Of a stretch of DNA of 64,000 nt, positions 7,709-23,301 are shown piece by piece. This DNA is from Streptomyces venezuelae (GTDB lineage Bacteria; Actinomycetota; Actinomycetes; Streptomycetales; Streptomycetaceae). Position 1 is the stretch's first letter, and each line of letters begins with the position of its first letter. Location: assembly GCF_008642315.1 (NCBI RefSeq), contig NZ_CP029192.1, positions 5,828,001 to 5,892,000 on the forward strand. The letters are read 5' to 3'. The notes beneath the pieces are model-generated. The model did not search any database. It was not told where the DNA came from and saw nothing but the letters and a program-made list of their open reading frames with translations. The translations under genes were made by a program, and so were the position numbers.

Positions 7709-8122
7709 TCAGCCCTCGGAGTTGACCATGGATGCGGCGGCGTACGTCAGGTAGTTCCACAGCGTCCGCTCGTGCTCCTCGGAGAGGTCGAGCCGGTCCA
7801 CCGCGTCGCGCATGTGCTTCAGCCACGCGTCGTGCGCGGCCCTGTCGACCGTGAACGGCGCGTGCCGCATGCGCAGCCGGGGGTGGCCGCGGTTGTCGCT
7901 GTACGTGCGGGGGCCGCCCCAGTACTGCATCAGGAAGAGCGCGAGACGCTCCTCGGCGGGCCCGAGGTCCTCCTCCGGGTACATCGGCCGCAGCAGCGGG
8001 TCCTCCGCGACCCCCTGGTAGAAGTAGTGCACCAGGCGTCGGAAGGTCTCCTCGCCGCCGACCTGCTCGTAGTAGGTCTGCTCCTGAAGCGTGCCGTGCG
8101 GGATATCTTTCACGCGTTCCAT
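7709..8122 (-). CDS. glbO: group II truncated haemoglobin (GlbO-like)
   Basis: 137 residues, the usual size of a trHbO 2-on-2 globin. Family landmarks are present: the YEQVGGEETFRRLV first helix, FYQGVAEDPLLRPMYPE, QYWGGPRTYSDNRGHPRLRMRHAPF with the proximal His, and the Trp in the late LWNYL helix. Such proteins bind O2 or NO and are linked to redox and nitrosative stress. The ATG at 8122 starts at the family's usual position; an ATG at 8164 would add 14 unrelated residues. Neither has a strong ribosome site. The gene stands alone, divergent from the methyltransferase gene. Confidence 0.87.
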   Translation of the reverse strand: MERVKDIPHGTLQEQTYYEQVGGEETFRRLVHYFYQGVAEDPLLRPMYPEEDLGPAEERLALFLMQYWGGPRTYSDNRGHPRLRMRHAPFTVDRAAHDAWLKHMRDAVDRLDLSEEHERTLWNYLTYAAASMVNSEG

Positions 8123-8257
8123 GGTCTCAGACGGGGCGGCCGAGTACGGAAGGCTTAGGACCATCCCCGATCATCGCCGATCGCCGGGGCACTGCCGGGA
8201 GCGGCGGCGGCGGTTCCGCCACTCGCATCGGAGGCCGCGGCGCAGCACAGTGGACCC

Positions 8258-9217
8258 ATGGAACCCGATCCTGTACTGCTCGCCGAGGCCCGGGCCGGCC
8301 TCGTGCGGGAGATCGAGGCGAGCGGGGCCTGGCGGGACGACTCCGCCTGGCGGGCGGCGTTCACCGCCGTCCCGCGGCACCTCTTCGTGCCCTACTACTA
8401 CGTGGGCGTGAGCGGCGGGTACGAGCGGCTGTGGGGCGAGGACCCCGACGAAGGGCGCCGCACCCGCTGGCTGCGCGGCGCCTACACGGACGCCCCCCTC
8501 GCCACCCGCGTGCGGGACGGAGACCTGCTCTCCTCCAGCAGCCAGCCGTCCCTGATGGCGAAGATGCTCGCCGAACTGGACGTACGCCCGGGACACCGCG
8601 TCCTGGAGATCGGCGCGGGCACCGGCTACAACGCGGCGCTGCTCGCCCACCGGCTCGGCGACGACCACGTCACGACCGTCGACCTCGACCCGGAGATCAC
8701 GGAGTCGGCCCGGCAGCACCTGGCGGCCGCCGGGTACCGCCCCGCCGTGGTGACCGGCGACGGCGCGGCCGGCTGCCCCGAGCGGGCGCCCTACGACCGG
8801 ATCATCGCCACCTGCACCCTGGGCTCGGTGCCGCGGACGTGGCTCGCCCAGTGCAGGCCCGGCGCCCGCATCCTGGCGCCGCTGGCCACCGGACTGATCA
8901 CGCTGACCGTGCGGGACGCGGAGCACGCCGAAGGGCGCTTCCTGCACACGCCCGCCTACTTCGTACCGCTGCGTGGGGGCGACGCGAGGACCCCGTACGA
9001 GCACCACATCGGAGGGCTGCCGCGCAAGGCCCTGCAGAGCGAGCTCTTCCGCTTCCTCCTGGAGCTGACCGCGGGCAGCCTCGATCCGCACGAAGCGCTC
9101 GCGCTGTGGCAGCGCGAGGGGCGGCCGGTGCGCGAGCGCTTCGGTGTCACGACGAGCGGGCCGTACGAGTGGGCCTGGCTGGACGACCCCGAAGGGCCGT
9201 ACGTCTGGCCTCTCTGA
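8258..9217 (+). CDS. PCMT-like SAM-dependent methyltransferase
   Basis: 319 residues. The core resembles protein-L-isoaspartate O-methyltransferase: SSSSQPSLMAKMLAELDV, the SAM motif I VLEIGAGTGYNAALLA, an acidic VDLDPEI strand that binds the ribose, and the PYDRIIATCTLGSVP post-motif. An N-terminal helical segment and a C-terminal extension of about 100 residues are not part of the minimal repair enzyme. It therefore belongs to the actinobacterial PCMT-like proteins, some of which modify peptides or proteins other than isoaspartate. No leader peptide or precursor gene is adjacent. The gene runs convergent to the FHA gene, with 37 bp between stops. Confidence 0.8.
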   Translation: MEPDPVLLAEARAGLVREIEASGAWRDDSAWRAAFTAVPRHLFVPYYYVGVSGGYERLWGEDPDEGRRTRWLRGAYTDAPLATRVRDGDLLSSSSQPSLMAKMLAELDVRPGHRVLEIGAGTGYNAALLAHRLGDDHVTTVDLDPEITESARQHLAAAGYRPAVVTGDGAAGCPERAPYDRIIATCTLGSVPRTWLAQCRPGARILAPLATGLITLTVRDAEHAEGRFLHTPAYFVPLRGGDARTPYEHHIGGLPRKALQSELFRFLLELTAGSLDPHEALALWQREGRPVRERFGVTTSGPYEWAWLDDPEGPYVWPL

Positions 9218-9254: not shown

Positions 9255-10610
9255 TCAGTCGCGGCGGATGGTGAGCGTCGTCCATGCGCCCACGTGGACC
9301 TGGTCGCCGTCCTGGAGGGGGACGGGCACGAACGGCTGGATGGGCTCCTCGCCGCCGTTGACCGTGGTGCCGTTCGTGGAGTTCTGGTCGACGACCGCCC
9401 AGCTGCCGTCCGGCTGCTGCACCAGGATCGCGTGCTGGTGCGAGACGCCCGGGTCCTCCGGCGGCACCGACAGGTCGATGTCCGGGGTGTCACCCGTGGA
9501 GTGCCTGCGGCGGCCGATGGTCAGCTGGTTGCCGGCCAGTGGGCGCTGCTGCTCGGGCGAGTACGCGGGCAGGTTGAGGCCCGAGGCCTCGGGGCCGCTG
9601 CGCTGCATCATCGCCATGAAGTACTCGCGGTCGGGACCGATCGTCACCGTCCAGGTGCCGGGGCCCTGCGCCTGCTGGGGCGGCTGGGGCTGGAAGGGCT
9701 CCTGCGGCTGCTGGAACGGCTCCTGGGGCTGCGGCGGCTGCGGCTGGAACTGCTCCTGCTGGGCCGGGGCCGACGGAGGCGAGATCACCCAGTCGTCGGC
9801 GGGCGGCGGAGGGGGCGGCCCCTGCGGGGCGCCGGTCTCCTGCGGGAACGCGGGCGGCGCGGGCGGACCCGGCTGCTGGAACGCCTGCGGGGCGCCGGGG
9901 GGCGGGGCCTGACCGGGGCCGGGGCCCTGGGGGCCGTGGCCCTGCGGACCACCCGGACCCTGCGGACCACCCGGACCGGGCTGCCCCGGGAACGGCTGAC
10001 CGGGACCCTGCGCACCCGGCTGACCGGGGAAGGGCTGACCCGGACCCTGCGGACCGGAACCCTGCGGACCCGGACCCTGACCCTGTTGGCCGCCACCGTT
10101 GCCGCTGCCGCCGCCGTTGCCGAACGGCGGGATCGGCTCGGCGGGCCGGTTCATCTGCGAGGGCCGCGAGCCCTGGTACTCGTAACCCGGCGGGGGCTGC
10201 TGGAACTGCTGGGCCGGGTTCGGGCCCGGCGGCCTTCCGGGACCGCCGCCGGGACCGCCGTGCGTGCCGGGCAGCGGCGGGTTCGGCGCGGCCGGGGTGT
10301 ACGACGTCGCCGTGTTCGTCAGGAAGTTCCAGCGGCACTCCTCGCAGAACGGCGCGTTCGCCTCGCGGGGCGTGCGGCACTGCGGGCAGAGCTGGGCCTC
10401 GGGAGCCGGATCCGGCACGGCGGCCAGGTGCGGGCGCCCCGGCGCGGGCTGCGGGAAGCCCGGGTCCTGGCCGGGCGGCGGCGGAGGGTAGCCGTACCCG
10501 GCCGCGGGCGGCGGCGGGGGCGGCGGAGGCACGGCACCGGCCATGCGGTGACCGCAGACCTCGCACCAGTCATCGGAACCCGACTGGTGTCCGTTCGGGC
10601 AGGTCGGCAT
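9255..10610 (-). CDS. zinc-ribbon/FHA domain phosphopeptide-binding protein
   Basis: 451 residues. Two zinc ribbons open the protein (C4, C16, C19; and C75, C78, C89, C92). A long Pro/Gly/Gln-rich linker (about 180-290, collagen-like GPQGPG and FPGQPG repeats) follows. A C-terminal FHA domain (about 355-445) has the VSHQHA and NSTNGTTVNG signatures that read phosphothreonine. It is the last gene of the PknG-type operon, so it is the natural substrate or reader of that kinase, a role played by GarA/OdhI in mycobacteria and corynebacteria. Unlike GarA, no ETTS phosphorylation motif precedes the FHA domain. The functional link to the kinase is inferred from operon position. Confidence 0.85.
   Translation of the reverse strand: MPTCPNGHQSGSDDWCEVCGHRMAGAVPPPPPPPPAAGYGYPPPPPGQDPGFPQPAPGRPHLAAVPDPAPEAQLCPQCRTPREANAPFCEECRWNFLTNTATSYTPAAPNPPLPGTHGGPGGGPGRPPGPNPAQQFQQPPPGYEYQGSRPSQMNRPAEPIPPFGNGGGSGNGGGQQGQGPGPQGSGPQGPGQPFPGQPGAQGPGQPFPGQPGPGGPQGPGGPQGHGPQGPGPGQAPPPGAPQAFQQPGPPAPPAFPQETGAPQGPPPPPPADDWVISPPSAPAQQEQFQPQPPQPQEPFQQPQEPFQPQPPQQAQGPGTWTVTIGPDREYFMAMMQRSGPEASGLNLPAYSPEQQRPLAGNQLTIGRRRHSTGDTPDIDLSVPPEDPGVSHQHAILVQQPDGSWAVVDQNSTNGTTVNGGEEPIQPFVPVPLQDGDQVHVGAWTTLTIRRD
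9895..10082. repeat. collagen-like GPQ/FPGQPG coding repeat inside the FHA gene
   Basis: Imperfect tandem repeats of about 9-24 bp (ctgcggacc, gggaacggctgaccggg) encode the Gly/Pro/Gln linker. They are likely to vary in length between strains. Confidence 0.6.
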
Positions 10611-10668
10611 GTCGGCGCTTCCCCCTCTCCTTCTCCGGCCCGAGGGCCGTACGTACTTGCTGCCGTAC

Positions 10669-12024
10669 TTACTGCTTCTTGACGCGAACAGTCTTCGTGG
10701 ACCGTGTCTCGAGTGTCATCTCGTCGGCCTCGGCGACCTTCGCCTTCAATCGAACAGTACCTGCCGCGGCGTCCACGACGTCCACCACCTTCGAAAGCAG
10801 TTTCGCCGTATCCGCGTTGCCCGAGGCGCTCGCGAGCTGCACCGCGCGGCCCAGTTTGGCCGTCGCCCCGTCGACATCTCCCGATTTGCGGGCATCGAGC
10901 CCCTGCTGGATCACCTGGGCCAGTTCCGCCTGGCCCGTGTAGTGCGCGACCTGCGGATTGATCGACGTGGATGCCGCCATGTCGTCCGTCCACACCGCCC
11001 GTACCAGCCCCTGCGACAGCGTCTGCGCGCTGCCGTCCTCGTGCGGCACGACCAGCGAGACACGGGCCGCGAGCATCTCCTGGCCGAGCTCGGCGCCCGG
11101 CACCTGGACGCAGATGTGATAGTCGCGGGACTCGTCGCCCCAGGACCCCGTCGGATAGTCCCCGGCGCGCGGCCCCGCCTCCGTGCGACGCCCGGTCAAC
11201 TCCTCGACCGTGGGCGCCACTTGCTTGACGAACTTGATCTCCACGCCCACCGGCGTCCACAGCCGCAGGCTGACGTCGGCGACCTCCTTGCCCATCGCCG
11301 TCTCCATCATCTGCGTGAAGTCGGTGGCGAGCGCGGCCGGATCGGCGACGATGTCGGCGGTGCCGAGCAGCGCGGAGGCGATCCCCGTGACCTCCTTCAC
11401 CTCCCAGTCCGTGCCGACGCCGCGGGCGTCGCAGGTGAAACGGCCCGCGCAGGAGTCGAGGGCGGCCCGCAGGTCCTCGGGCGACTCGTGTTCGTTGCGG
11501 CCGTCGGTGAGCAGGATGCCGTGCCGCACCGCCGACGTGGCCACGTCCGCGGAGGTCAGGAGGCGGTCGGCGAGGCGCAGCCAGGTGCCGATCGCCGTGC
11601 CGCCGCCCGCGCTCAGCCTGCGCAGCGCCTGCTTGGCCAGCTCACGGGTCTGCGGTCCCGCGACGGCGAGCCGGCCGCCGCCCGGGTAGACCTCCTTGGC
11701 GACGTGGGTGCCGCCGATCACCGCGAAGTGCACGCCGTCGCGGAGCGCGTCGATCGCGGCGGCGGTGGCGTCCCGTGCGCCGCGCATCTTCGTCGGCGGG
11801 TAGTCCATCGAACCGGAGCAGTCCACCATGATCGCGACGGCGGCGTCCGGGCTCTGGCCCGCCGTGTACAGGTGGGGTGCACCGACCGCGGCGCCGATCG
11901 TCCCGCCGCCGGTCGAGGTGACCGTGGCGATGGCGTTGACCTCGCGGCCCCCCTCCGGCAGGTACTCGTTCTGGTAGACGTCCACAGCGAACTGCGGCAC
12001 GTTCGATTTCGAGAAATTGGCCAT
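10669..12024 (-). CDS. von Willebrand factor type A domain protein of the PknG operon
   Basis: 451 residues. After a short N-terminal strand region (MANFSKSNVPQFAVDVYQNEYL) comes a VWA domain with a complete MIDAS start, DCSGSM (Asp68, Ser70, Ser72), so metal-dependent protein binding is plausible. The C-terminal third resembles the beta-rich plus helical tail of TerY/YfbK-type VWA proteins. There is no signal peptide or membrane segment, so it is cytoplasmic. It lies between the PP2C and FHA genes (68- and 58-bp gaps) in one transcription unit with the PknG-like kinase. I infer a scaffold or adaptor role in that signalling unit. Confidence 0.82.
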   Translation of the reverse strand: MANFSKSNVPQFAVDVYQNEYLPEGGREVNAIATVTSTGGGTIGAAVGAPHLYTAGQSPDAAVAIMVDCSGSMDYPPTKMRGARDATAAAIDALRDGVHFAVIGGTHVAKEVYPGGGRLAVAGPQTRELAKQALRRLSAGGGTAIGTWLRLADRLLTSADVATSAVRHGILLTDGRNEHESPEDLRAALDSCAGRFTCDARGVGTDWEVKEVTGIASALLGTADIVADPAALATDFTQMMETAMGKEVADVSLRLWTPVGVEIKFVKQVAPTVEELTGRRTEAGPRAGDYPTGSWGDESRDYHICVQVPGAELGQEMLAARVSLVVPHEDGSAQTLSQGLVRAVWTDDMAASTSINPQVAHYTGQAELAQVIQQGLDARKSGDVDGATAKLGRAVQLASASGNADTAKLLSKVVDVVDAAAGTVRLKAKVAEADEMTLETRSTKTVRVKKQ

Positions 12025-12092
12025 GGAACTGCTCCCCCTCAGATCCTCATAACCTCAAGACACATGACCCGCTACGGTCCCCCCGCCGGGTT

Positions 12093-13430
12093 CTAGGCCG
12101 ATCCTGCCCCCTGCGGCACGAACGGGAACGGCACGACGGCCACTGTTACGTTGTCGTGGCCCCCGCCGTCCAGCGCGTGGCCGACCAGGACCTGGGCGCT
12201 GTGCAGCGGCCGGTCCGCGGCGTCGGCGGGCACCGCGTCGGCCATCTCCTCGACGGCTTCCGCGTAGTTCCACAGACCGTCCGTGCACACCACCACTACA
12301 CCCGCACGGTCCGGCTTGAAGGAAGCGGTGTGCGGTTCCAGTTCGTACGCGTCCGCGCCGAGCCAGCCCGTGATGGCGTGCGCGCGCTCGTCGGCGTACG
12401 CCTCGGCCTCGTTCATCAGGCCCGCGGCGACCATCTGCGCGGCCCACGAGTCGTCCTCGGTCAGGCGCACGGTGGGGCCCTCTCGGTCGTCGGGGACCCA
12501 GTAGGCGCGGCTGTCGCCGACCCAGCCGACGACGAGCAGGCCGCCCGCGACGATCGAGCCGACCAGGGTGCAGGCGGGCGCGTTCTGGTGAGGGCTGTGC
12601 TCGCGGGCCGACGCGGGTTCGGCGGCGAGCGCGTTGACGGCGTCGGCGGCCGCGAGGATCGCCTCGTGCATCGCCTGCTGGGGGTGCGTGCCGCGCGGGA
12701 GCGAGACGAGCAGCGTCTCGTTGGCGGCGCGGGACGCGGCGAGCGAGGCCTCGTCCGGGCGGGTCGCGGAGGAGACGCCGTCGCAGACGATCGCGACGAC
12801 GGCGGGGGAGCCGTCGGGCAGCGCGGCCGTGGAGATCGCGAAGGCGTCCTCGTTGCGGTGGTGGCGCAGGCCGCGGTCGCTGACGGCGGCGACGGTGTCG
12901 AGCTCCTGCTCCATGTGGTCGCGCTCGCGGGGCTGGGCGTGCCCGCAGTTCTCGCAGTACCCGTCCGGGTCGACGCGGCCCGAGCGGCACGCCACGCAGA
13001 GCTTGGTGCCCGCGGGGGGCGTGGGGTCGGGCGCGGCCGTGCGGGGGTCGGCGGCGGGCGCGGCGGCGTCGGGGGCGCCCGGCGCGGGCAGCGGGTACTC
13101 GTCCGGCTCACCGGACGCGACCGGAGCGACGGAGGCGGCGTCCGGGCGCTCCGCGAGTTCGCCGCCCGCCGAGTCCGTGCCCTGCAGGTCCGTCGGCAGA
13201 TGCGTCGGCACCGGGGTGTCGGAGCTGTCGACCTCCGGCGCGACCGGCCACTCGGAGGGTTCCCCGTTCCCGGCGGCGGCCCGCACGGACCCGGCGGACC
13301 CGTTGGGGGACACGTCCGGCCGCGGTGGCACCGCCGACAGGTCGAACCCGCACGCACCGCAAAACAGGTCACCCGACTCCAGCGGCTCCTCACAGCTGGG
13401 GCAGGCAGACAGCTGGGGCATCTGCGACAT
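12093..13430 (-). CDS. zinc-ribbon PP2C-type serine/threonine phosphatase
   Basis: 445 residues. Two zinc ribbons (C10, C13, C24, C27 and C145, C148, C159, C162) are separated by an acidic Pro/Ala linker. The C-terminal PP2C domain has SDRGLRHHRNEDAFAI, VCDGVSS with a metal-binding Asp, GWVGDSRAYW, TDGLWNYAE and the final HDNVTVAVV, so it should be catalytically active. The ATG at 13430 directly follows the kinase stop (13433-13435). A GTG at 13442 would add four residues and overlap the kinase. It is the obvious antagonist of the adjacent PknG-like kinase. Confidence 0.88.
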   Translation of the reverse strand: MSQMPQLSACPSCEEPLESGDLFCGACGFDLSAVPPRPDVSPNGSAGSVRAAAGNGEPSEWPVAPEVDSSDTPVPTHLPTDLQGTDSAGGELAERPDAASVAPVASGEPDEYPLPAPGAPDAAAPAADPRTAAPDPTPPAGTKLCVACRSGRVDPDGYCENCGHAQPRERDHMEQELDTVAAVSDRGLRHHRNEDAFAISTAALPDGSPAVVAIVCDGVSSATRPDEASLAASRAANETLLVSLPRGTHPQQAMHEAILAAADAVNALAAEPASAREHSPHQNAPACTLVGSIVAGGLLVVGWVGDSRAYWVPDDREGPTVRLTEDDSWAAQMVAAGLMNEAEAYADERAHAITGWLGADAYELEPHTASFKPDRAGVVVVCTDGLWNYAEAVEEMADAVPADAADRPLHSAQVLVGHALDGGGHDNVTVAVVPFPFVPQGAGSA

Positions 13431-13432
13431 AC

Positions 13433-15967
13433 TCACACCCACGTCCGGGGGCGGAAACGGTTGGCCCGCTCCACCAGTTCGATCCTCTCCTCGCCACCCT
13501 GAGCGAGCCGGGCCAGTGTCCGGTACGAACGCTCCAGGCCGAACCGGAGGCCGCGCTCGTCCAGGTCGCTGCCGAGCAAGACGGCCCGCGTCCCGGGAGT
13601 GCCCGGTGGCGCGGAAACGTGACCAGAGTGCCTACCGGAGAGTACCCAGTCGAGCGCCGTCCCCAGAACTTCGGTCGACAGGCGCTCCCTGCGCACCGCG
13701 TCGAGCCCGAACCCGGCAAGTGCCTCGATCTGCCCCGCGGCGGCCGTCAGCTCGTCCAGGAAGGCGACGCCCGAAGGGGCTGCCGTGTCCGACGTCATAC
13801 GGTGACGCAGCCGCGCCCGCACCGCCGCCACCCGGGCCGCGGTGTAGTGGATGGAGGACTCGGGCACCGACTCCAGGGTGCGTACGGAACCGGCCCTGTC
13901 GCCGGCCGCGAGCCGCACGCGGGCCAGGCCGAACGCCGCGCTCACATAGCTCGGGTCGGTCGTCCACACCAGGCGGTAGTACTCGGCGGCGTTGTCCAGC
14001 TGGCCGAGGACCTCCGCGATGACGCCGAGCGCCAGCTTCGGCGCGGGCTCCCCGGGGAACGCGTCGTAGACCGCGTCGAAGGACAGCGCCGAGTTCTCGA
14101 AGTCGCCGGTCGCCAGGGCCGCGACGCCCCGGTACCAGACGACCCGCCAGTCGTCCGGGTGCTGTTGCTCCAGGTCGGCGAGGGCCTGGGCGGCGGGCGC
14201 CAGTTCCCCCATGGCGAGCCGGGCGCGCAGGCCGCGCAGCTGGAGTTCCAGGGAGTCCGCGGGCGCCGTGCCGAGGGCGGTGATCAGCTCGGCGGGCGCG
14301 GCCGTGATGAGGCCGGCGAGGAACCCGGCGTTCGGGTCGTTCGGGTCCACCAGGGGCACGGGCAGCGCGAGGGCGGTCGCCACGGAGTCGAGCCCCCGGA
14401 CGATCCCCGCGGTCGAGGTGCTCTCCGGCAGCGCCCTGACGTTCTCCCCGGCGGTGGACTCGGCGCGGACGCCGAGCCGCGACACCTCCCCGGCCAGTTC
14501 GGCGAACAGCTCCGTGTCCGGCACCTTCACCTCGGGCCCGAACAGCGTCGAGAGCGCGGGCCGCGGCAGCCCCGACTGGAGCGCCACGACCTCCCGCAGG
14601 ACACCCGTCAGCTGCTCGGCCATCTCCTGTGCGGAGGCGAACCTGCGGGCCGGGTCGGGGTCCGTGGCGCGGACCAGGAGGCGGTAGAAGGACTCGTACG
14701 TCCGGAAGACCTCGATGTTGTCGGGGTCGGGCAGGGAGTCCACGAACACGTTCGTGTAGCCCTGGAAGTCGAAGGTGAGGACCGCGAGGGTGCGGGCCAC
14801 GGTGTAGAGGTCGGAGGCGACGGAGGGGCCCACGTCGGCGACCTCGGGGGCCTGGTAGCCGACCGTTCCGTAGATCGCTGACTCGTCGTCGTCCATCCTG
14901 CGGACCGCGCCCATGTCGATGAGCTTGAGCTGGCCCTCGGTCTGGATGGCGTTGTCGACCTTGAAGTCGCAGTACAGGAGCTTGCGGCTGTGCAGATGAC
15001 CGAGGGCGTCCAGGGCCTCGATGCCGTACGCGCAGGCCTGCTCGACCGGCAGCGGGTCGCGTCTGCCCTCCGGGGTGCGGCGGCCGTTGGCGATCTCCTT
15101 GAGGGACTTGCCGCCGACGTACTCCATGACGATGTACCCGTCCATGGAGCCGGTGCGCTGGTCGAGGTGCTCGACGAAGTTGTAGATGCGGACGATGTTG
15201 GAGTGCTCGATCTCCGCGAGGAAGCGCCGCTCGGAGATGGCCGCGGCCATCGCGTCCTGGTCGCCCGTGTCGAGCAGCCCCTTCAGGACCACCCACCGGT
15301 CGGACACCGCACGGTCGATGGCCAGATAGACCCAGCCGAGCCCGCCGTGCGCCAGACAGCCCACGACCTCGTACTGGCCGTGCACGATGTCGCCCGGGTG
15401 CAGCTTCGGCACGAACGAGTAGGGGTGCCCGCACTTGGTGCAGAACCCCTCCGTGCGGCCGGGGCGTTCGCCCCGCGCGCGGCCCACCGGCGCCCCGCAG
15501 TCGGAGCGCGAGCAGAATCGCTTCCGCTCGGGCACCTCGGGGTTCTTCTGCACGGCCTCGCGGGGATCGGGGCGCGGCACGTCCGGCACGGCGACCAGGC
15601 CGACGCCGAGCCGCCCCCGCGCCGACGAACCCGTCGCCGAGCCGGAGCTGCGCACCGACACCGAGCGGGACGTCGAACTGCCGGACAGCGAGCGGGAGAG
15701 CCGCCCGGACACCGACCTGCGCGAGGACTGCGAGCGCGACGACCGGGACGACGTACGGGAGGACCGCGACGACGACGAGCGGCCGCTGGAGCTTCCCGAG
15801 CCCCGCGAGCCCTTGCCGCCGGCCGTAAGACCGGTCGGCGGCGACGAGACGTTGCCGTCCGGCGCGACGACGGGGGCGAGCCCGCACGTGTCGCAGTACA
15901 GCTCACCGCCGCCGAAGTCGTCGTAACTGCCGGTGCACTTGGGCCGCTGACATTCACGCCGGCTCAT
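13433..15967 (-). CDS. pknG: PknG-like serine/threonine protein kinase
   Basis: 844 residues. Domains in order: an N-terminal zinc ribbon (C6, C11, C25, C28), a Ser/Arg-rich linker (about 53-120), the rubredoxin-like metal site typical of PknG (C152, C157, C176, C179), the kinase domain, and a helical TPR region. The kinase has the PknG hallmarks: HGQYEVVGCLAHGGLGWVYLA glycine loop, VVLK lysine (Lys229), CDFKVDN catalytic loop (Asp334) and IDMG in place of DFG (Asp351). PknG phosphorylates FHA regulators of 2-oxoglutarate metabolism in response to amino acids. The ATG at 15967 overlaps the previous stop. The extra ribbon and SR-rich linker are additions compared with mycobacterial PknG. Confidence 0.93.
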   Translation of the reverse strand: MSRRECQRPKCTGSYDDFGGGELYCDTCGLAPVVAPDGNVSSPPTGLTAGGKGSRGSGSSSGRSSSSRSSRTSSRSSRSQSSRRSVSGRLSRSLSGSSTSRSVSVRSSGSATGSSARGRLGVGLVAVPDVPRPDPREAVQKNPEVPERKRFCSRSDCGAPVGRARGERPGRTEGFCTKCGHPYSFVPKLHPGDIVHGQYEVVGCLAHGGLGWVYLAIDRAVSDRWVVLKGLLDTGDQDAMAAAISERRFLAEIEHSNIVRIYNFVEHLDQRTGSMDGYIVMEYVGGKSLKEIANGRRTPEGRRDPLPVEQACAYGIEALDALGHLHSRKLLYCDFKVDNAIQTEGQLKLIDMGAVRRMDDDESAIYGTVGYQAPEVADVGPSVASDLYTVARTLAVLTFDFQGYTNVFVDSLPDPDNIEVFRTYESFYRLLVRATDPDPARRFASAQEMAEQLTGVLREVVALQSGLPRPALSTLFGPEVKVPDTELFAELAGEVSRLGVRAESTAGENVRALPESTSTAGIVRGLDSVATALALPVPLVDPNDPNAGFLAGLITAAPAELITALGTAPADSLELQLRGLRARLAMGELAPAAQALADLEQQHPDDWRVVWYRGVAALATGDFENSALSFDAVYDAFPGEPAPKLALGVIAEVLGQLDNAAEYYRLVWTTDPSYVSAAFGLARVRLAAGDRAGSVRTLESVPESSIHYTAARVAAVRARLRHRMTSDTAAPSGVAFLDELTAAAGQIEALAGFGLDAVRRERLSTEVLGTALDWVLSGRHSGHVSAPPGTPGTRAVLLGSDLDERGLRFGLERSYRTLARLAQGGEERIELVERANRFRPRTWV

Positions 15968-17283
15968 GATTCCCCCGTCCGGTCGGTGGGCCCGCCCTGC
16001 TGCGGGACCCTCGGCGCAAGCACTTCGGCGGCGGCCTGCTGATAGCGGAGGACCGCCTGCTCGGCCACCCGGAGATCGCAGGGCGCGCTCCACAGCATCC
16101 GGCGGGCCGCGTCGTACCGCTCGACGAGGAGCGGGTCCTCGGCGTGGCCGAGGCGGGCGACCTTCGCCTTGTACGCGTCCAGGCGGCCGCGCAGCTCGGC
16201 GCGGACCGCGAGGGGCGCGGTGACGGCGGTCAACGACTCGCGGGCACGCAGCAGTTCGTCCTCCGCCTTCTGCTCCAGGGACTCCAGGAGCGGCGAGAGG
16301 CGGTGCCACTGGGCGTGCCTGCGGTACTCCGACGCCATCGCCAGCTGCTCCTGGAGCGCGGTCGGCGGGCCGCTGACAGCGGGCACCTCGGAGGCGGCGA
16401 TCTTCGCGAGGACCTCGCCGCGCGCGGAGCGTGCCTCCGACAGGGTGCGGTCGGCGCGGGACAGCACGTCGCGGAGCCTGCCGAGGCGCACCTCCGCGTC
16501 CTGCCGGACCGTGAGCACCGCCTCGATCTCGCGGCGCACCTCTTCGAGCGCGCGGGCCTCGCGGTCGTAGCGCTCGGTGTGGGGGCGGCCGCCGCCGGGC
16601 GCCGAACTGCCCTCCGCGCGCCGCCAGAACGCGAGCGGATCGGAGACCACCTGCTCGCGCAGCGCGGTCAGGGTGCGGGTGATGCGCTCCAGGTCGTCGC
16701 CGGAGGGGTGCTCCCCGGGGCGAACGCCCACGGAGTGCGCGAGCTGGCGGGTGCGGTGCAGTTCGGCGGCGAGCAGGTCGATGCGGGCGGGCAGCGCGGA
16801 CCACACCGCGTCGGCGGCGACGACCATGTCGAGGGAGTCCGCGTACAGGTCGTTCATGCGCGTCACGAGCTCTTCGAGGGTGAAGCGCTCGGTGAGCTTT
16901 GCGGGTCCGGTGAGCGAGGGCGACGCACCGGACGAGGAGCCGCCCGCGACGGTCACGGCCTCGCCGCGCAGCAGCTCCGTCAGCTCGACGAGGTCGTCCT
17001 TGCTGGGCCAGCGTCTGCGCTCGCGCACGTCGCGTGCGGTGCGCAGGGCGCCCGCGTACGCGTCGAAGTACGCCCACAGGAGGGTGATGCGGGCCTCCGT
17101 GGCCGTCCAGCGCTCCTCGGTGACGCCGGTGAGCGCGGCGCCTTCGAGCAGGCGGCGGCCCGCGTGGTCCTGGAGGGCGAGGAGCGAGGTCTCGATCGCC
17201 TCGTGCTCGGCGTCGAGCCGCGCCAGCGCACGGTCCACCTCGTCCCGGTCCATCACCGGACCGGGGGGTCCCGCGACGCTCAT
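15964..17283 (-). CDS. alpha-helical protein of the PknG operon
   Basis: 439 residues, highly charged and almost entirely helical, with heptad-like stretches (ERYDREARALEEVRREIEAV and similar) indicating long coiled coils. There is no signal peptide, transmembrane segment or known catalytic motif. Its stop overlaps the PknG start by four bases, so the two proteins are translationally coupled and may form a complex. An alternative start at MDRDEVDR (17253) is possible. Mycobacterial pknG operons lack an obvious counterpart. I do not recognise a named family; a scaffold for the kinase is a guess from coupling. Confidence 0.75.
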   Translation of the reverse strand: MSVAGPPGPVMDRDEVDRALARLDAEHEAIETSLLALQDHAGRRLLEGAALTGVTEERWTATEARITLLWAYFDAYAGALRTARDVRERRRWPSKDDLVELTELLRGEAVTVAGGSSSGASPSLTGPAKLTERFTLEELVTRMNDLYADSLDMVVAADAVWSALPARIDLLAAELHRTRQLAHSVGVRPGEHPSGDDLERITRTLTALREQVVSDPLAFWRRAEGSSAPGGGRPHTERYDREARALEEVRREIEAVLTVRQDAEVRLGRLRDVLSRADRTLSEARSARGEVLAKIAASEVPAVSGPPTALQEQLAMASEYRRHAQWHRLSPLLESLEQKAEDELLRARESLTAVTAPLAVRAELRGRLDAYKAKVARLGHAEDPLLVERYDAARRMLWSAPCDLRVAEQAVLRYQQAAAEVLAPRVPQQGGPTDRTGES

Positions 17284-17386
17284 CGATCACCTCTCCGCTC
17301 TGTGTTGCCCCGGGGACTCGGTGGTCGAGGTCCCGTCGTGACTCTCGTAACTCTCCAGTCGTACCAGGTCGGTTGTCGGTTCCGGG

Positions 17387-18388
17387 TCAGTCCCGGTACT
17401 CGGGGGCCGGCGGGCCCGAGGACTTGCCGAGGCCTTCCTTCAGCCACTTGTCGTAGGACTTCTGCCAGCCGCCGTTGTCGCGGTAGTCGTCGAGGACCTT
17501 GTTGACCCGGCGGACCAGGTCGTCCGAGCCCTTCTTCATCGCCACGCCGTAGTGCTCGGTGGTGAACGGCTCCTTGCCCTTGAGCTCGACCGTCGGGTCC
17601 TGCGCGGCCTGGCCCGCGGCGAGGGCGCTGTCGGTCACCACGGCGTCCACCTCGCCGAGCTGGAGCCGCACCAGGCAGTCCAGCTGGTTGGGCACGGTGG
17701 TGGAGATGTCGGCGGAGTAGTTCTTCTTCTTGAGCTCGTCCTCGGCGATGGAGCCGGAGGCGCTGCAGATCTTCTTGCCGGTGAGCGACGGGTCGTACCC
17801 CGTGATGTCGGACTTCTTCGGGGCGAGGACCTGCTGGCCCGTCTCGAAGTACCCGGTGGAGAAGTCGACGTCCTTCAGGCGCTCGCAGTTGACGGTCATC
17901 GTGCGGACGACCATGTCCACCTGGCCGCTCTGGATCGCGGGGATGCGCTCGTTGGTGGGTATGGCGCGGAAGACGACGGCGTCGCGGTCGCCGAAGATCT
18001 CCTCGGCGATCTCGCGCGCGAGGTCGATGTCGAAGCCCTCCAGCTCGCCGCCCTTCTTGTTCGGGTCGCGGTAGCCCCACCGGTAGCTGTTCTGGTCGAC
18101 GCCGACGATGAGCTTCTTGACTTGGCGGTTCCTGATCTGCTCGATCGTCGGGCCGTCCTTGGAGGAGGGGCTCAGGCTGCGGTCGTTGCAGTCGTCGGCG
18201 TCCGCACGCGCGGGCGCCGCCACCGTCGAGCCGGGCCCGCCCCGCTGTACGCCGTCGTCGCCTCTGTCGCCTCTGTCGCCCCTGTCCGGCAGCACCAGGA
18301 CGAGCGATCCCGCGACGGCGCAGGCGAGGCCCATCGCGCCCACCCCGCCCCAGCCGCGCAGCCTGGCCGTGCCGCGTCGCGTCCGCAT
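17387..18388 (-). CDS. glnH: GlnH-like glutamate/aspartate-binding protein
   Basis: 333 residues. A basic N-terminus and a hydrophobic segment (VGAMGLACAVAGSLVLVL) act as signal or anchor. An Ala-Cys occurs inside it, but the position is poor for a lipobox. The rest is a type II periplasmic binding fold: VDQNSYRWGYRDP, LEGFDIDLAREIAEEIFG, AIPTNERIPAIQSGQVDMVVRTMTVN, then VDFSTGYFETGQQVL, as in amino-acid receptors of the GltI/GlnH class. No ABC permease is adjacent; instead it lies between a GlnX-like membrane protein and PknG. In mycobacteria GlnH senses aspartate/glutamate and signals through GlnX to PknG. The ATG at 18388 has a GAGAGGGGG ribosome site. Confidence 0.87.
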   Translation of the reverse strand: MRTRRGTARLRGWGGVGAMGLACAVAGSLVLVLPDRGDRGDRGDDGVQRGGPGSTVAAPARADADDCNDRSLSPSSKDGPTIEQIRNRQVKKLIVGVDQNSYRWGYRDPNKKGGELEGFDIDLAREIAEEIFGDRDAVVFRAIPTNERIPAIQSGQVDMVVRTMTVNCERLKDVDFSTGYFETGQQVLAPKKSDITGYDPSLTGKKICSASGSIAEDELKKKNYSADISTTVPNQLDCLVRLQLGEVDAVVTDSALAAGQAAQDPTVELKGKEPFTTEHYGVAMKKGSDDLVRRVNKVLDDYRDNGGWQKSYDKWLKEGLGKSSGPPAPEYRD

Positions 18389-18438
18389 CGTCTGCGCGCC
18401 CCCTCTCACCTCTGAACCCGTCACCGGCTCCGAACCCC

Positions 18439-19923
18439 TCACCGGTACTCCGAAAGCCTGCGGCCGATGCCGAGGACGGCGCCCGCCGCGGCGAGGACCG
18501 CGAGGACGGCGGCGCCGACGGCGAGCCCGCTCATGGCGCCCCTGCCGTCCTTCGCCGCCTGCTGGAACTCGCGCTGCTCGTGCGCCAGGGCCCGGTCGAG
18601 GGCCGCGTCCACGTTGTCGAAGCACTCGCCCGTCGGCTCGTCGGCCTTGGCGCCGATGACCTTGTCGAGCGCCCCCTGATAGTCACCGGAGTCGTCGCTG
18701 GAGCGGGCCACCTGGTGGCGGTCCTTCCAGACGCCCACGTTCTTCGCGGCCTCGGCGACGGGGTTCCCGCCCTCCGAGTCGTCGGCGAGGTCGGCGGCCT
18801 CGCCGAGCAGACCGCTGTCGGCGCCGCCCAGCTGCTTCATCTGCGCCCGGTAGGCGACGTCGAACTTGTCCTCCGACTTGCCGTCCACCTCGGTGGTCTC
18901 GGCGCCGCGGCTGACCAGCGTCAGGTTCTCGTTGCCGCGCGCCTTCAGGGAGCTGATCCGGGCGTCGTTGAGGACGTTCAGGGACCGCACGCCGTTGTCG
19001 TACGAGTCGTTGAGACCCGAGCGCGCGAAGGTGTGGCCGACGACGAGCCAGAGCAGCACGACCGTGGCGGCCGCGGTCGCGGCGAGCAGGCCGTGGTTGA
19101 ACACCCGGTTTGTACGGCGGTAGTTGCGGTGCTGCGCCCAGCCGAGCGCGGCGAGCGCGAGCACGCCGAGGGCGATCGCGAACCAGGGGTACGGCTTGGC
19201 GTTGCCGTAGTCGGAGCTGAGCCGTTCGTTCTCCGCCTTGTAGAGCTTCTCGGCGGCCGGGAGCATCTGCGTCTGCATCTTGTCGTTCGCGTACCGCAGA
19301 TAGGCGCCGCCCAGCGGCAGGCCCTGGCGGTTGCTGGCGCGGGCGCGCTCGATCAGGCCCGTGTACTCGGGAAGCAGCCTGTTCAGCTTGCCGACCGCCG
19401 TCGCGGACGACGAGTCGGCGCCCGCGTTCGACGCGGCGGTCGCCAGCTTCTCGGAGGCCCGCTCGATGTCCTTCTCGTACCGCGCGCGGACGGCGGCCGG
19501 CTCCTGGCCGCCCGCGAGGAACCCGCTGGACGCCGCGGTGTTGGCGTCGGCCAGTGAGCGGTAGATGGCGGCCGCGTCGGCGCTCAGTGGCTGGCTGCGG
19601 CCCAGCACGTCGTCCGCGGCGGCCGAGCGCTCCGTCATCTGCCAGGTGGTGACCGCGCCGAACGCGACGACGAGCAGCGCGAGGACCGCGCCGATGATCC
19701 GCAGTCTGCCCGGCTCCGTGGTCGCCGCGGCCCGCACCCGGTCGACACCCTCGGACCAGGCGGTGCGGCGCGGGGCGGCGGGCGGCGCGGCCTGCGCCCC
19801 GGGCGCCTGGGGCGGCACGGTGGGCATCGTCGGCGCGGGCCGCCGCGGAGCCTGCGCGGGCACGGCCGGTGCCTGTGCGGGCGGGCCCGACGGCACCGCG
19901 CCGCCGTTCGGCGGATGTGTCAC
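18439..19923 (-). CDS. glnX: GlnX-like four-helix membrane protein
   Basis: 494 residues. A Pro/Ala-rich cytoplasmic leader (1-55) precedes TM1 (75-94). A 150-residue extracytoplasmic helical domain, TM2 (246-263), TM3 (279-298), a second extracytoplasmic helical domain and TM4 (465-486) follow. This two-sensor, four-helix layout matches GlnX, which couples the GlnH receptor to cytoplasmic PknG. The GTG at 19923 is preceded by GAGG and opens MTHPPNGG. The longer in-frame ORF upstream has no similarity to anything and is rejected. It is the first gene of the seven-gene unit ending at the FHA gene. Confidence 0.85.
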   Translation of the reverse strand: MTHPPNGGAVPSGPPAQAPAVPAQAPRRPAPTMPTVPPQAPGAQAAPPAAPRRTAWSEGVDRVRAAATTEPGRLRIIGAVLALLVVAFGAVTTWQMTERSAAADDVLGRSQPLSADAAAIYRSLADANTAASSGFLAGGQEPAAVRARYEKDIERASEKLATAASNAGADSSSATAVGKLNRLLPEYTGLIERARASNRQGLPLGGAYLRYANDKMQTQMLPAAEKLYKAENERLSSDYGNAKPYPWFAIALGVLALAALGWAQHRNYRRTNRVFNHGLLAATAAATVVLLWLVVGHTFARSGLNDSYDNGVRSLNVLNDARISSLKARGNENLTLVSRGAETTEVDGKSEDKFDVAYRAQMKQLGGADSGLLGEAADLADDSEGGNPVAEAAKNVGVWKDRHQVARSSDDSGDYQGALDKVIGAKADEPTGECFDNVDAALDRALAHEQREFQQAAKDGRGAMSGLAVGAAVLAVLAAAGAVLGIGRRLSEYR

Positions 19924-20126: not shown

Positions 20127-21122
20127 TCAGGCGACGCGCGCGCCGTCCTCGTAATGGGCCCGCACGCACGCGTACACCTCGGCCGGAGCCGCGACGTGAT
20201 CGAGACCGAGGAGCGCCGCGCCGAGCACGGGACGTGCGGCGACGACCCGCGGCACCGCCTTCGGCGCCCGCTCGGCGAGCAACGCCCGCACGCCGTCGTC
20301 CAGTTGCGGGTGGCGCGCGGCGAGGACGCTGCCGCCGAGCAGCACCGGAGCCTCCTCGTCGAGCAGGTCGAGCCGGTCGAGGGCCACCGTCGCCATGGCG
20401 ACGACCTCCTCCGCCATCCGGTCCACCACCGAGCGGGCCACGACGTCACCCGCGGCCGCGGTGGCGAACAGGACCGGCGTCAGCTCGTGCCGCCGCACCG
20501 GGGCGACACGGCCCAGGTGCAGCGCCTCGATCAGCGCGTACATGGACGCAAGACCGAAGTGCGCGGGCAGCGTCTCGCGCAGCGCGGTCGGCTCGCCCCG
20601 CCCGTCCTCGGCACGCGCCGCGAACCAGAGGGCCTCCTCCGCGAGGCCGCCGCCCCCGCCCCAGTCGCCGGAGATGCGGCCGATGGCGGGGAAGCGGGCG
20701 GTGCGCCCGTCCGGGAGCATGCCGACGCAGTTGATGCCCGCGCCGCAGACCACGGCGACCCCGCGCGGCTCTGCGTCCTCGCGGAGCCCGGCGCGCAGGA
20801 TCGCGAAGGTGTCGTTGCGCACGTCGACCGAGGGCCCCCACGCGCGTCGGCGCAGCGCCTCCGCCAACTCCCGCTCCTCCACGGGCAGATCGGCGTTGGC
20901 GAGGCAGGCGGACACGTGCCCGACGGAGTCGGCGCCCGCCTCCGCGAGGGCCCGTGCCACCGCCTCCGCCAGGATGTCCACCGCGGCCTCGACGCCGACC
21001 CGAGGCGGTTGGAACCCGCCGCCGCGGGCCGTGCCGACGACCGTGCCGTCGGCCGCGACCACCGCGACGTCGGTCTTGCTGTTGCCCGCGTCGATCGCGA
21101 GCACGCTCGTGCCTACGCCCAC
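20127..21122 (-). CDS. BadF/BadG-family sugar kinase (N-acetylglucosamine kinase-like)
   Basis: 331 residues of the ASKHA (actin/hexokinase) fold. The phosphate-1 loop AIDAGNSKTDVAVV opens the protein. VDVRNDTFAILRAG contains the catalytic-type Asp, and VAVVCGAGINCVG is the phosphate-2 loop, followed by ISGDWGGGGGLAEEAL as in NagK/BadF proteins. It phosphorylates sugars with ATP in the cytosol. The GTG at 21122 overlaps the preceding GH4 stop by 10 bases, so both are translated together. Because the operon's transporter is an ABC system that delivers unphosphorylated sugar, this kinase probably makes the phosphosugar that GH4 enzymes need. The exact sugar is unknown. Confidence 0.83.
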   Translation of the reverse strand: MGVGTSVLAIDAGNSKTDVAVVAADGTVVGTARGGGFQPPRVGVEAAVDILAEAVARALAEAGADSVGHVSACLANADLPVEERELAEALRRRAWGPSVDVRNDTFAILRAGLREDAEPRGVAVVCGAGINCVGMLPDGRTARFPAIGRISGDWGGGGGLAEEALWFAARAEDGRGEPTALRETLPAHFGLASMYALIEALHLGRVAPVRRHELTPVLFATAAAGDVVARSVVDRMAEEVVAMATVALDRLDLLDEEAPVLLGGSVLAARHPQLDDGVRALLAERAPKAVPRVVAARPVLGAALLGLDHVAAPAEVYACVRAHYEDGARVA

Positions 21123-22378
21123 GCCAGGTGCTCCCGGTTGTGCGCGATGAGGCTGTCGGTGAGCTGCTCCGCGTACGCGTACTGCCCGACCAGCGGGTGG
21201 GCGAGCAGCGCCTTGAAGACCCGCTCGCGCCCGCCGTGCACGGCCGCCTGGAGTGCCAGGTCCTCGTAACCGGTGACGTTCGCGATGAGCCCGGCGTACA
21301 GCGGGTCGAGCTTCGGCACGGACAGCGGCTTCGCCCCCGAGCCGTCCACGGCGGCCTGCACCTCGATGACCGCGTCGTCGGGCAGGAACGGCAGCGTGCC
21401 GTTGTTGACGGTGTTCACCACCTGGTAGGGGCTGCCGCCGTTGCCGAGCAGCGAGGCCGCGAGGTCGACGGCCGCCTCCGAGTAGAAGGCGCCGCCGCGC
21501 TTGGCGAGCAGCTCCGGCTTCTCGTCGAGCGCCGGGTCGCCGTACATCTCCAGGAGCTGCTTCTCCATCTCGGCGACCTCGGCGGCGCGCGACGGCTTGG
21601 TGCGCAGCTCTTCGACGACGGCGTCGTGCTGGTAGTAGTAGCGCAGGTAGTACGAGGGGACGACGCCGAGCCGGTCGACGATCGCGCGCGGCATGCGCAG
21701 GTCCTCGGCGACCGCGTCCCCGTGCTCGGCGAGCAGCCTGGGCAGGATGTCGTCGCCCTGCGGACCCCCGAGGCGTACGCCCGTCTCCCACGTCAGGTGG
21801 TTGAGGCCCACGTGGTCCAGGTGCACCTCGCCGGGCGCGACGTCGAGGAGCTTCGCGAACTTCCGCTGGAAGCCGATCGCGACGTTGCACAGGCCGACTG
21901 CCTTGTGCCCGGCCTGCAGCAGCGCCCGCGTGACGATGCCGACGGGGTTGGTGAAGTCGATGATCCACGCGTTCGGGTTGGTGCGCCGCACGCGCTCGGC
22001 GATGTCGAGGACGACGGGCACCGTGCGCAGCGCCTTCGCGAGACCGCCGGCGCCGGTGGTCTCCTGGCCGACGCAGCCGCACTCCAGCGGCCACGTCTCG
22101 TCCTGGTTGCGGGCGGCCTGCCCGCCGACGCGCAGCTGGAGCAGCACGGCGTCGGCGTCCGCGACGCCCGCGTCCACATCGGACGTGGTGACGATGCGGC
22201 CCGGGTGGCCCTGCTTGGCGAAGATGCGCCGCGCGAGGCCGCCCACCAGCTCAAGGCGGTCGGCCGCCGGGTCGACGAGGACCAGCTCCTCGATCGGCAG
22301 GCTGTCCCTCAACCGCGCGAATCCGTCGATGAGTTCGGGTGTGTAGGTCGACCCTCCGCCGACCACTGCGAGCTTCAT
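21113..22378 (-). CDS. family GH4 6-phospho-beta-glucosidase
   Basis: 421 residues. The N-terminal Rossmann fold starts MKLAVVGGGSTYTPELIDG and binds NAD+. VLLQLRVGGQAARNQDE and IIDFTNPVGIVTRAL are family signatures. The metal site is visible as GLCNVAIG (Cys164) and GLNHLTW (His194). GH4 enzymes cleave phosphorylated glycosides by an NAD+- and Mn2+-dependent oxidation/elimination mechanism. The gene overlaps the kinase downstream and follows the permease gene by 8 bp. Substrate specificity (cellobiose-6-P or another beta-linked phosphodisaccharide) cannot be fixed from the sequence. Confidence 0.88.
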   Translation of the reverse strand: MKLAVVGGGSTYTPELIDGFARLRDSLPIEELVLVDPAADRLELVGGLARRIFAKQGHPGRIVTTSDVDAGVADADAVLLQLRVGGQAARNQDETWPLECGCVGQETTGAGGLAKALRTVPVVLDIAERVRRTNPNAWIIDFTNPVGIVTRALLQAGHKAVGLCNVAIGFQRKFAKLLDVAPGEVHLDHVGLNHLTWETGVRLGGPQGDDILPRLLAEHGDAVAEDLRMPRAIVDRLGVVPSYYLRYYYQHDAVVEELRTKPSRAAEVAEMEKQLLEMYGDPALDEKPELLAKRGGAFYSEAAVDLAASLLGNGGSPYQVVNTVNNGTLPFLPDDAVIEVQAAVDGSGAKPLSVPKLDPLYAGLIANVTGYEDLALQAAVHGGRERVFKALLAHPLVGQYAYAEQLTDSLIAHNREHLAWA

Positions 22379-22386
22379 ATCGGTTC

Positions 22387-23301
22387 TCAGCCCTTTACTC
22401 CGGTGAGGGTGACGCCTTCGACGAAGGCCTTTTGTGCGAAGAAGAAGACGATGATGACGGGGGCCATGACGAGCAGCGTCGCGGCCATGGTCATGTTCCA
22501 GTTGACGGCGTGGGCGCTCTTGAACGACTCGAGGCCGTAACTGAGCGTCCAGGCACCGGGGTTCTGCGCCGCGTAGATCTGCGGGCCGAAGTAGTCGTTC
22601 CAGCAGTAGAAGAACTGGAAGAGCGCGATGGCGGCGATGCCGGGCTTGGCCATCGGCACCACGATCTTCACCATGGTGCGGAACTCACCGCACCCGTCGA
22701 CCTTCGCCGACTCGATGTACTCCTTGGGGATGGTCAGCAGGAACTGCCGCAGCAGGAAGATCGAGTACGCGTCGCCGAACGCCATCGGAATGATCAGCGG
22801 CCACAGGGTCCCCGACAAATGAAACTGCTGAGCCCAGACCAAATACATCGGAATGACGATGACCTGCGGCGGCAGCATCATCGTCGAGATGACGAGCAGC
22901 ATCGCGGTGCGCCGCCCGCGGAAGCGGAACTTGGCGAGCGCGTACGCCACGGGGATCGCCGAGCAGACCGTGAAGAGGGTGCCGAGCCCCGCGTACATGA
23001 GCGAGTTGCGCCACCAGTCCAGGAAGCCCGGCGTCTCGAACACGGCCTTGTAGTTGGACCAGTGCCAGGAGTCGGGCCACAGGTCGCCGCTCATGGCCTG
23101 CGAGTCGCTCATCACCGACGTGAGGAAGACGAAGACGAACGGCAGCAGGAACAGCAGCGCGACGGCTATCGCGACGCTGTGCACGGCGATCCAGTGCAGG
23201 ATCCGCTTGCGGCGGGCGCGGGCGGCGGCGGGCCCCCGGTTCGGGGAGGTCCGTTCGGGTGTCGACGCCGACGCGGGCGCGCTGAGAGTAGTGGAAGTCA
23301 T
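22387..23301 (-). CDS. carbohydrate ABC transporter permease (MalG type)
   Basis: 304 residues. A disordered N-terminus is followed by six predicted membrane helices, the first being VAIAVALLFLLPFVFVFLTSV. The EAA loop ESAKVDGCGEFRTMVKIVVP binds the ATPase subunit. It pairs with the MalF-type permease 36 bp upstream. No ATPase gene is present in the operon, which is usual in Streptomyces, where MsiK serves many sugar importers. It ends 8 bp before the GH4 gene. Confidence 0.9.
   Translation of the reverse strand: MTSTTLSAPASASTPERTSPNRGPAAARARRKRILHWIAVHSVAIAVALLFLLPFVFVFLTSVMSDSQAMSGDLWPDSWHWSNYKAVFETPGFLDWWRNSLMYAGLGTLFTVCSAIPVAYALAKFRFRGRRTAMLLVISTMMLPPQVIVIPMYLVWAQQFHLSGTLWPLIIPMAFGDAYSIFLLRQFLLTIPKEYIESAKVDGCGEFRTMVKIVVPMAKPGIAAIALFQFFYCWNDYFGPQIYAAQNPGAWTLSYGLESFKSAHAVNWNMTMAATLLVMAPVIIVFFFAQKAFVEGVTLTGVKG

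What the first reader, a model, noticed from the sequence alone, without database searches (positions are those of the whole stretch)
9255..19923. PknG signalling operon enlarged with phosphatase, VWA, coiled-coil and FHA genes
Seen: seven same-strand genes in the order GlnX-like, GlnH-like, helical protein, PknG-like kinase, PP2C, VWA, FHA, several with overlapping or tightly spaced ends. Known: in mycobacteria PknG, GlnX and GlnH form an amino-acid sensing pathway whose target is the FHA protein GarA. Inference: this operon encodes the full circuit from sensor to antagonistic phosphatase and phosphopeptide reader, plus two parts (VWA and helical protein) not in the mycobacterial set. Three of the proteins (kinase, phosphatase, FHA) each start with zinc ribbons, which suggests that they assemble together.
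Basis: partly seen in the sequence, partly recalled or inferred. Interest (0 to 1): 0.75.

Follow-up and report, generated by a model that had tools for sequence, protein, structure and literature searches.

The report
Extended PknG nutrient-signalling operon
A soil bacterium (Streptomyces) carries a widely conserved seven-gene version of the amino-acid sensing kinase operon known from mycobacteria, and two of its extra proteins look like a bacterial counterpart of the ArnA-ArnB nutrient switch of archaea, which suggests a second, unstudied output of this kinase.

Summary
Seven minus-strand genes (9255-19923) encode GlnX, GlnH, a helical protein (HEL), PknG, PP2C, VWA and FHA in a Streptomyces genome. 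The set is a conserved actinobacterial module, not a local enlargement: 68 of 80 named Streptomyces loci hold all seven, and the other 12 end within 3 kb downstream of PknG. Other families hold most or all of it, one with the order rotated. Of 27 PknG-positive mycobacterium-like genomes, 26 lack HEL and VWA matches.

The parts
18439..19923 (-). GlnX-family membrane signal transducer (494 aa from GTG 19923)
   Evidence: NF058618 511.8 bits over cut-off 250; equivalog NF041460 187.7 bits, below its cut-off 780
17387..18388 (-). GlnH-like solute-binding protein (333 aa)
   Evidence: SBP_bac_3; best PDB match Mtb GlnH 6h1u, E 1e-50. Pocket residues by alignment: R147, T162, R169 and D250 kept, S164 to T, K161 to R, W232 to Q (residue roles from PMC6069109 passages; numbering counted by me)
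15964..17283 (-). HEL: all-helical protein, 439 aa, no known family
   Evidence: no Pfam or NCBIfam match over cut-off; AlphaFold pLDDT 88.3, helical; stop overlaps the pknG start by 4 nt
13433..15967 (-). PknG: N-terminal zinc ribbon, rubredoxin domain, kinase, TPR (844 aa)
   Evidence: catalytic Lys, Asp and DMG motif seen by eye in the translation
12093..13430 (-). PP2C phosphatase with two N-terminal zinc ribbons (445 aa; GTG 13442 also possible)
   Evidence: PP2C_2 and Stp1-like matches; metal-binding Asp motifs seen by eye
10669..12024 (-). ArnB-like VWA protein: VWA inserted in a beta-sandwich, C-terminal helical domain, conserved S/T tail (451 aa)
9255..10610 (-). FHA protein: two N-terminal zinc ribbons, Pro/Gln/Gly-rich linker, C-terminal FHA (451 aa); not GarA

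Best explanation
The locus is the common actinobacterial form of the PknG pathway. It is built from three parts that can be lost separately: (i) a sensor-kinase arm, GlnH-GlnX-PknG; (ii) an ArnB-like VWA protein; (iii) a HEL-PP2C-FHA arm with a PknG-independent job. Likely working: extracellular acidic amino acids bind GlnH; GlnX passes the signal to PknG through its TPR domain; PknG phosphorylates the unlinked, zinc-ribbon GarA (releasing 2-oxoglutarate dehydrogenase) and also the C-terminal region of the VWA protein. The FHA protein docks on the VWA protein through its zinc ribbons and, after phosphorylation, tightly through its FHA domain, as ArnA does on ArnB. PP2C resets these sites. Shown here: gene content, synteny, fold match, motifs, loss pattern. 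Inferred from relatives: signal flow and GarA control. Inferred only: phosphorylation of VWA, VWA-FHA binding, substrates of PP2C, and HEL as scaffold.
Against: FHA is kept in 9 Streptomyces loci that lost VWA together with PknG, and in 4 controls without intact VWA (G329, G335, G425, G436), so FHA must have other ligands and the VWA-FHA pair is not obligate. VWA is kept in 3 of 12 PknG-less loci (G645, G541, G503), so VWA is not used by PknG alone. In the f16 family 8 of 20 loci read show no VWA and 11 of 20 no FHA by my profiles. dN/dS in PknG-less pairs reaches 0.51-0.55 for FHA (G604/G643, G254/G489) against 0.02-0.18 for HEL, PP2C and FHA in a PknG-positive pair (G329/G436), so constraint may be relaxed. 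No phosphorylation or binding was tested. GlnH lacks Trp232 of the mycobacterial pocket, so its ligand may differ. Loci were mostly fetched around HEL, so HEL retention is partly ascertained, though HEL was matched in 49 of 51 genomes searched. The ArnB similarity is of fold, about 15% identity.
Confidence: 0.5

Rival explanations
1. The HEL-PP2C-FHA arm works mainly for another kinase (for example PknB acting on GarA) and merely shares an operon with PknG; VWA and FHA do not touch.
For: HEL, PP2C and FHA outlive PknG at 12 of 12 readable Streptomyces loci (in G604 PP2C and FHA read in two frames), under purifying selection. [quoted passage not shown]
Against: Outside Streptomyces HEL is found only with PknG in this sample: 68 of 71 HEL-bearing genomes have PknG and the 3 others are Streptomyces. 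The set is kept together even where the order is rotated.
Confidence: 0.28
2. One complete, obligate circuit from sensor to phosphatase and reader.
For: Tight spacing, conserved synteny, shared zinc ribbons.
Against: Repeated loss of the sensor-kinase part with retention of the rest, and the reverse in mycobacterium-like genomes.
Confidence: 0.12
3. A kinase-PP2C-VWA-FHA stress or conflict module like the type VI secretion threonine phosphorylation pathway or the kinase-PP2C-vWA triads of GAP1-N2 systems.
For: Same domain set; an active kinase, often with a zinc ribbon, next to PP2C and a standalone vWA is described for actinobacterial GAP1-N2 systems (PMC7159879, passage read).
Against: Here the kinase is PknG with GlnX and GlnH, and 50 of 80 named loci show the same sugar-metabolism and globin/methyltransferase flanks on both sides. 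PADLOC matches of the window proteins cover the kinase, plus one weak PP2C match at E 0.005. GAP1-N2 and secretion genes were not searched for.
Confidence: 0.05

Closest known systems
PknG-GlnX-GlnH-GarA/OdhI pathway of mycobacteria and Corynebacterium glutamicum
   Same: same kinase architecture as mycobacteria, same sensor pair, GarA orthologue with ETTS motif present in the genome
   Different: HEL, PP2C, VWA and FHA added; extra zinc ribbon on PknG; GarA has a zinc ribbon; GlnH Trp232 is Gln
ArnA-ArnB nutrient-dependent phospho-switch of Sulfolobus acidocaldarius
   Same: neighbouring genes for a zinc-ribbon FHA protein and a VWA protein with VWA + split beta-sandwich + C-terminal helical domain; a kinase with TPR repeats (ArnC, PMC5300886 passage)
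   Different: VWA identity about 15%; phosphorylation-dependent binding shown only in archaea; the ArnA zinc finger is described as RanBP2-type; TPRs precede the kinase domain in ArnC and follow it in PknG; output there is motility
4FX5 / Caci_2163 VWA protein of Catenulispora acidiphila
   Same: 52-54% identical to the window's VWA, same family
   Different: noted in PMC6509490 and PMC12852372 as a structural relative of ArnB; its gene neighbours were not discussed in the passages I read and not examined by me
Kinase-PP2C-vWA triads in GAP1-N2 GTPase systems (PMC7159879)
   Different: no PknG, GlnX, GlnH, FHA or HEL described there in the passage read

Membership tests
PknG-GlnX-GlnH pathway | kinase with rubredoxin domain and PknG-type TPR | tested here: met
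   PF16919 105 bits, PF16918 291 bits
PknG-GlnX-GlnH pathway | GlnX-family transducer | tested here: met
   NF058618 511.8 over 250; the narrower equivalog NF041460 (187.7 of 780) not reached
PknG-GlnX-GlnH pathway | GlnH with Asp/Glu pocket | tested here: inconclusive
   R147, T162, R169, D250 kept; S164T, K161R, W232Q
PknG-GlnX-GlnH pathway | GarA/OdhI substrate with ETTS motif in the genome | tested here: met
   L001, 191 bits (family cut-off 200 not quite reached), ETTS present
PknG-GlnX-GlnH pathway | amino-acid-stimulated GarA phosphorylation | not testable with these tools
   needs experiment
GarA/OdhI (for the operon FHA protein) | OdhI profile score and N-terminal ETTS motif | tested here: not met
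   26.9 bits (cut-off 200) for the place in the window; no ETTS in the translation
ArnA-ArnB | VWA protein of three-domain ArnB fold | tested here: met
ArnA-ArnB | FHA protein with N-terminal zinc ribbon encoded next to it | tested here: met
ArnA-ArnB | phospho-acceptor sites in the VWA C-terminal domain | tested here: inconclusive
   conserved S442 and T445 near the C-terminus, pLDDT 44 in the last block of the model; no phosphodata
ArnA-ArnB | phosphorylation-dependent FHA-VWA binding | not testable with these tools
   needs experiment
GAP1-N2 kinase-PP2C-vWA triad | linked GAP1-N2 and double-GTPase genes | not tested
   no profile for these was run
Type VI secretion threonine phosphorylation pathway | linked secretion genes | not tested
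   compared from a literature listing only

The most novel reading that the evidence does not exclude
PknG's ancestral output is double: besides GarA it drives a bacterial ArnA-ArnB-type switch, in which the PknG-phosphorylated C-terminus of an ArnB-fold VWA protein captures a zinc-ribbon FHA protein. If so, one nutrient-controlled kinase/VWA/zinc-ribbon-FHA device is shared by actinobacteria and archaea, mycobacteria lost it, and the HEL-PP2C-FHA arm has a further PknG-independent role.
Probability: 0.35. Interest if true: 0.8.

Novelty: new variant of a known kind. Interest (0 to 1): 0.62.

Why it matters
In the papers I saw, PknG is studied in the three-gene form and through GarA/OdhI. If the common form carries an ArnAB-like switch and its own phosphatase, PknG phenotypes in antibiotic producers cannot be read through GarA alone. 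The loss pattern gives clean, testable dissections (HEL-PP2C-FHA without the kinase; kinase without VWA). It also suggests a biological setting for a solved but functionally orphan structure (4FX5), and a bacterial system in which to test the ArnA-ArnB mechanism.

Tried and rejected

Strict co-loss of VWA with PknG: suggested by the first three genomes, then weakened. Three PknG-less loci keep VWA and four PknG-positive controls lack an intact one. It is reported as loose linkage.

Zinc ribbon on GarA as a sign of the extended operon: 26 of the 31 GarA loci read have it, among them genomes with no PknG match (G006, G011, G014, G017, G254), so it is not tied to the operon. The 5 without it are three f4, one f41 and one f23 locus. 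One search covered 42 genomes; 30 loci of it were read, plus L001.

The Fisher test of PknG against VWA_3_C (odds 73, p 8e-35) ignores relatedness and is given only as description.

Literature: nine of ten search calls used. In one search (12 of 16 papers listed) no listed paper holds PknG or GlnX together with ArnB or von Willebrand. In one search one paper, PMC1262709, holds both PknG and VWA; its passages do not describe this operon. In one search (12 of 16 listed) the only paper with both 'gara' and 'zinc ribbon' is a topoisomerase review. Subscription papers are not covered. That SCO2666 is the S. coelicolor PknG and that the upstream genes are a chitosan operon are my recall. PMC9600765 (passages) calls SCO2666 a phosphorylated kinase and lists a phosphorylated VWA protein, SRIM_014225; I could not tell whether that is this VWA.
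Full report
OBSERVATION. The window lies in an 8.94 Mb single-contig genome (G000:C1:5828001-5892000). It is taken as Streptomyces because the 80 best relatives of its PknG are all Streptomyces, nearest S. atriruber (93%) and S. alfalfae (86%). Seven minus-strand genes from 19923 down to 9255 encode GlnX, GlnH, HEL, PknG, PP2C, VWA and FHA. Gaps are 50, 103, -4, 2, 68 and 58 nt. The run ends against a plus-strand gene (8258-9217), and the sugar-kinase-like gene upstream ends 203 nt before GlnX starts (coordinates).

CONSERVATION. The scan of named genomes kept 80 loci. All 80 have GLNX, GLNH, HEL, PKNG and PP2C in this order. By profile, VWA is missing in 7 and FHA in 12; all of these end within 3.0 kb downstream of PknG (tblastn counted partial FHA in 72). 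These 80 are close relatives by design. In a sample of 296 genomes of the class, 110 match PknG_TPR, of which I count 107 as PknG-positive; one decayed copy (G134) and two matches below the cut-off were dropped. I fetched 60 loci, chosen to include paralogues and three-gene loci, and annotated them with profiles built from the Streptomyces genes. Counts for GLNX, GLNH, HEL, PKNG, PP2C, VWA, FHA: f15 17, 18, 14, 20, 18, 14, 16 of 20; f16 19, 18, 12, 20, 11, 12, 9 of 20; f22 5, 5, 0, 5, 5, 5, 4 of 5; f11 and f37 one locus each, both without HEL and FHA; f23 one locus with PKNG, PP2C and FHA; f41 two loci, one three-gene; f4 3, 3, 0, 3, 0, 0, 0 of 3; seven second-copy Streptomyces loci hold PKNG (7), VWA (4) and HEL (1). 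Contig ends were not corrected for here. A later search of the 296 genomes with a HEL alignment found HEL matches in 71, among them f11, f37 and three f22 genomes. In f15 the order is rotated: HEL-PKNG-PP2C-VWA-FHA-GLNX-GLNH. So the large set is the common form outside f4, and the three-gene operon of the literature (PMC6069109 and PMC8546545, passages read) looks reduced; no rooted tree was made to prove direction. G259 holds an additional copy of the whole set (L266: FHA, VWA, PP2C, PKNG, HEL, GLNH; GLNX beside it) besides two other PknG genes, which suggests transfer as a block.

GarA IS ELSEWHERE. The OdhI/GarA profile finds its orthologue 1.7 Mb away (191 bits, ETTS motif), while the operon FHA protein scores 26.9 bits. 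Unexpectedly the Streptomyces GarA has an N-terminal zinc ribbon, as do 26 of 31 GarA loci read; three f4, one f41 and one f23 locus lack it. Ribbons here are thus on kinase, phosphatase, operon FHA and the classical substrate alike. PP2C has at least one ribbon in 78 of 81 Streptomyces loci (window included) and FHA in 60 of the 69 where it was found. Two ribbon-like patterns precede the kinase domain (the extra ribbon and the rubredoxin one) in 72 of 81 Streptomyces PknG; the extra one is not seen in the three full f4 loci.

TWO ARMS THAT COME APART. Three of 31 Streptomyces in the class sample lack PknG (G134 decayed, G254, G286). They also lack intact VWA and GlnX but keep HEL, PP2C and FHA at the same site. 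A genus sample of 393 genomes gave 17 without a PknG match and 12 with matches worse than 1e-55 (G134 among them); with G254 and G286 this makes 31 candidates. These 31 and 20 PknG-positive controls were searched for VWA and HEL: HEL matched in 49 of 51, VWA intact in 16 of 20 controls. I fetched loci for 19 of the 31. In 12 the locus is readable and PknG is lost or a remnant; in 7 the contig ends inside the region. The 12 not fetched are fragmented assemblies or carry VWA and HEL on separate contigs and were left undecided. In the 12 clear cases GLNX and GLNH are lost or decayed at the locus in 11 of 11 testable, VWA in 9 of 12, and HEL, PP2C and FHA are present in 12 of 12. HEL reads in one frame in all 12, PP2C and FHA in 11 (G604 reads in two frames for both), and PP2C lacks its N-terminal part in G556 and G535. 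G489, G604, G643 and G503 have a weaker, paralogue-like VWA elsewhere, so they are not free of every PknG-like system. Four controls (G329, G335, G425, G436) keep the rest but have no intact VWA; in G425 PknG itself reads in two frames. On a HEL tree of 103 leaves, without support values, these make about 9 separate PknG losses and 7 VWA losses. HEL, PP2C and FHA stay under purifying selection between sister PknG-less genomes: dN/dS 0.12, 0.17, 0.18 in G645/G503; 0.23, 0.34, 0.40 in G489/G647; 0.29, 0.26, 0.51 in G604/G643 (partial pieces); the PknG-positive pair G329/G436 gives 0.14, 0.18, 0.02, so some relaxation is possible. In f16, G015 has no PknG match, a VWA remnant, and PP2C and FHA (L270). 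Three f15 loci (L121, L125, L135) show no VWA while PP2C and FHA remain.

SENSOR. GlnH is closest to mycobacterial GlnH among solved structures; most ligand residues named in PMC6069109 are kept, but Trp232 is Gln and Lys161 Arg, so the ligand preference should not be assumed. PknG, PP2C and FHA keep their catalytic or binding motifs by eye.

PARALOGOUS MODULES. G000 and other Streptomyces have a second PknG-type locus. L166, L170, L172 and L165 (f41) each have a trypsin-like protease gene, a PknG-like kinase and a VWA. The protease has a HEL-like C-terminus in L166, L165 and L170 (matches E 4e-16, 1e-10, 5e-7). A GlnX-like protein is clear in L170 (59.9 bits) and weak in L166 (24.5 bits). An SBP_bac_1 binding protein is clear in L172 and L165, weak in L166 (21.8 bits, below cut-off) and not identified in L170. 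So binding protein, transducer, PknG-type kinase and VWA look like a reusable scheme with other ligands. PMC6069109 (passage) notes other kinases linked to solute-binding proteins.

VERDICT. The best reading is a conserved module with a sensor-kinase arm, an ArnB-like VWA partner and a separable HEL-PP2C-FHA arm. Phosphorylation and binding steps are unproven. HEL remains without a known fold relative or function; scaffold is my guess.

Noticed in passing
L166 (G000:C1:5143100-5163000), also L170, L172, L165: Paralogous loci: trypsin-like protease (HEL-like C-terminus in three of the four), PknG-like kinase, VWA, with a GlnX-like protein (L170, weak in L166) or SBP_bac_1 binding protein (L172, L165, weak in L166); a PknG-type sensor scheme with a probable sugar-type ligand.
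   Followed up: partly
L001 (G000:C1:7548288-7548635): GarA/OdhI orthologue with an N-terminal zinc ribbon; 26 of 31 GarA loci read have one, the three mycobacterium-like ones do not.
   Followed up: partly
L266 (G259:C144): A mycobacterium-like genome carries an extra full-size extended PknG operon, probably acquired as a block.
   Followed up: partly
window 20127-26918, minus strand: Sugar kinase, glycosidase-like, ABC transporter genes and a ROK-type regulator upstream (named by eye); looks like a chitosan uptake operon (recalled). The three nearest genes are found in 65 to 70 of 80 Streptomyces loci.
   Followed up: no
L267 (G034:C1:7085000-7104900): PP2C-VWA-FHA set with no PknG match in the 20 kb read, in a genome that has two PknG loci elsewhere.
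   Followed up: no
window 7709-8164 and 8258-9217: Globin and methyltransferase genes downstream of the operon, matched in 58 and 56 of 80 named loci (many contigs end earlier); no link studied.
   Followed up: no
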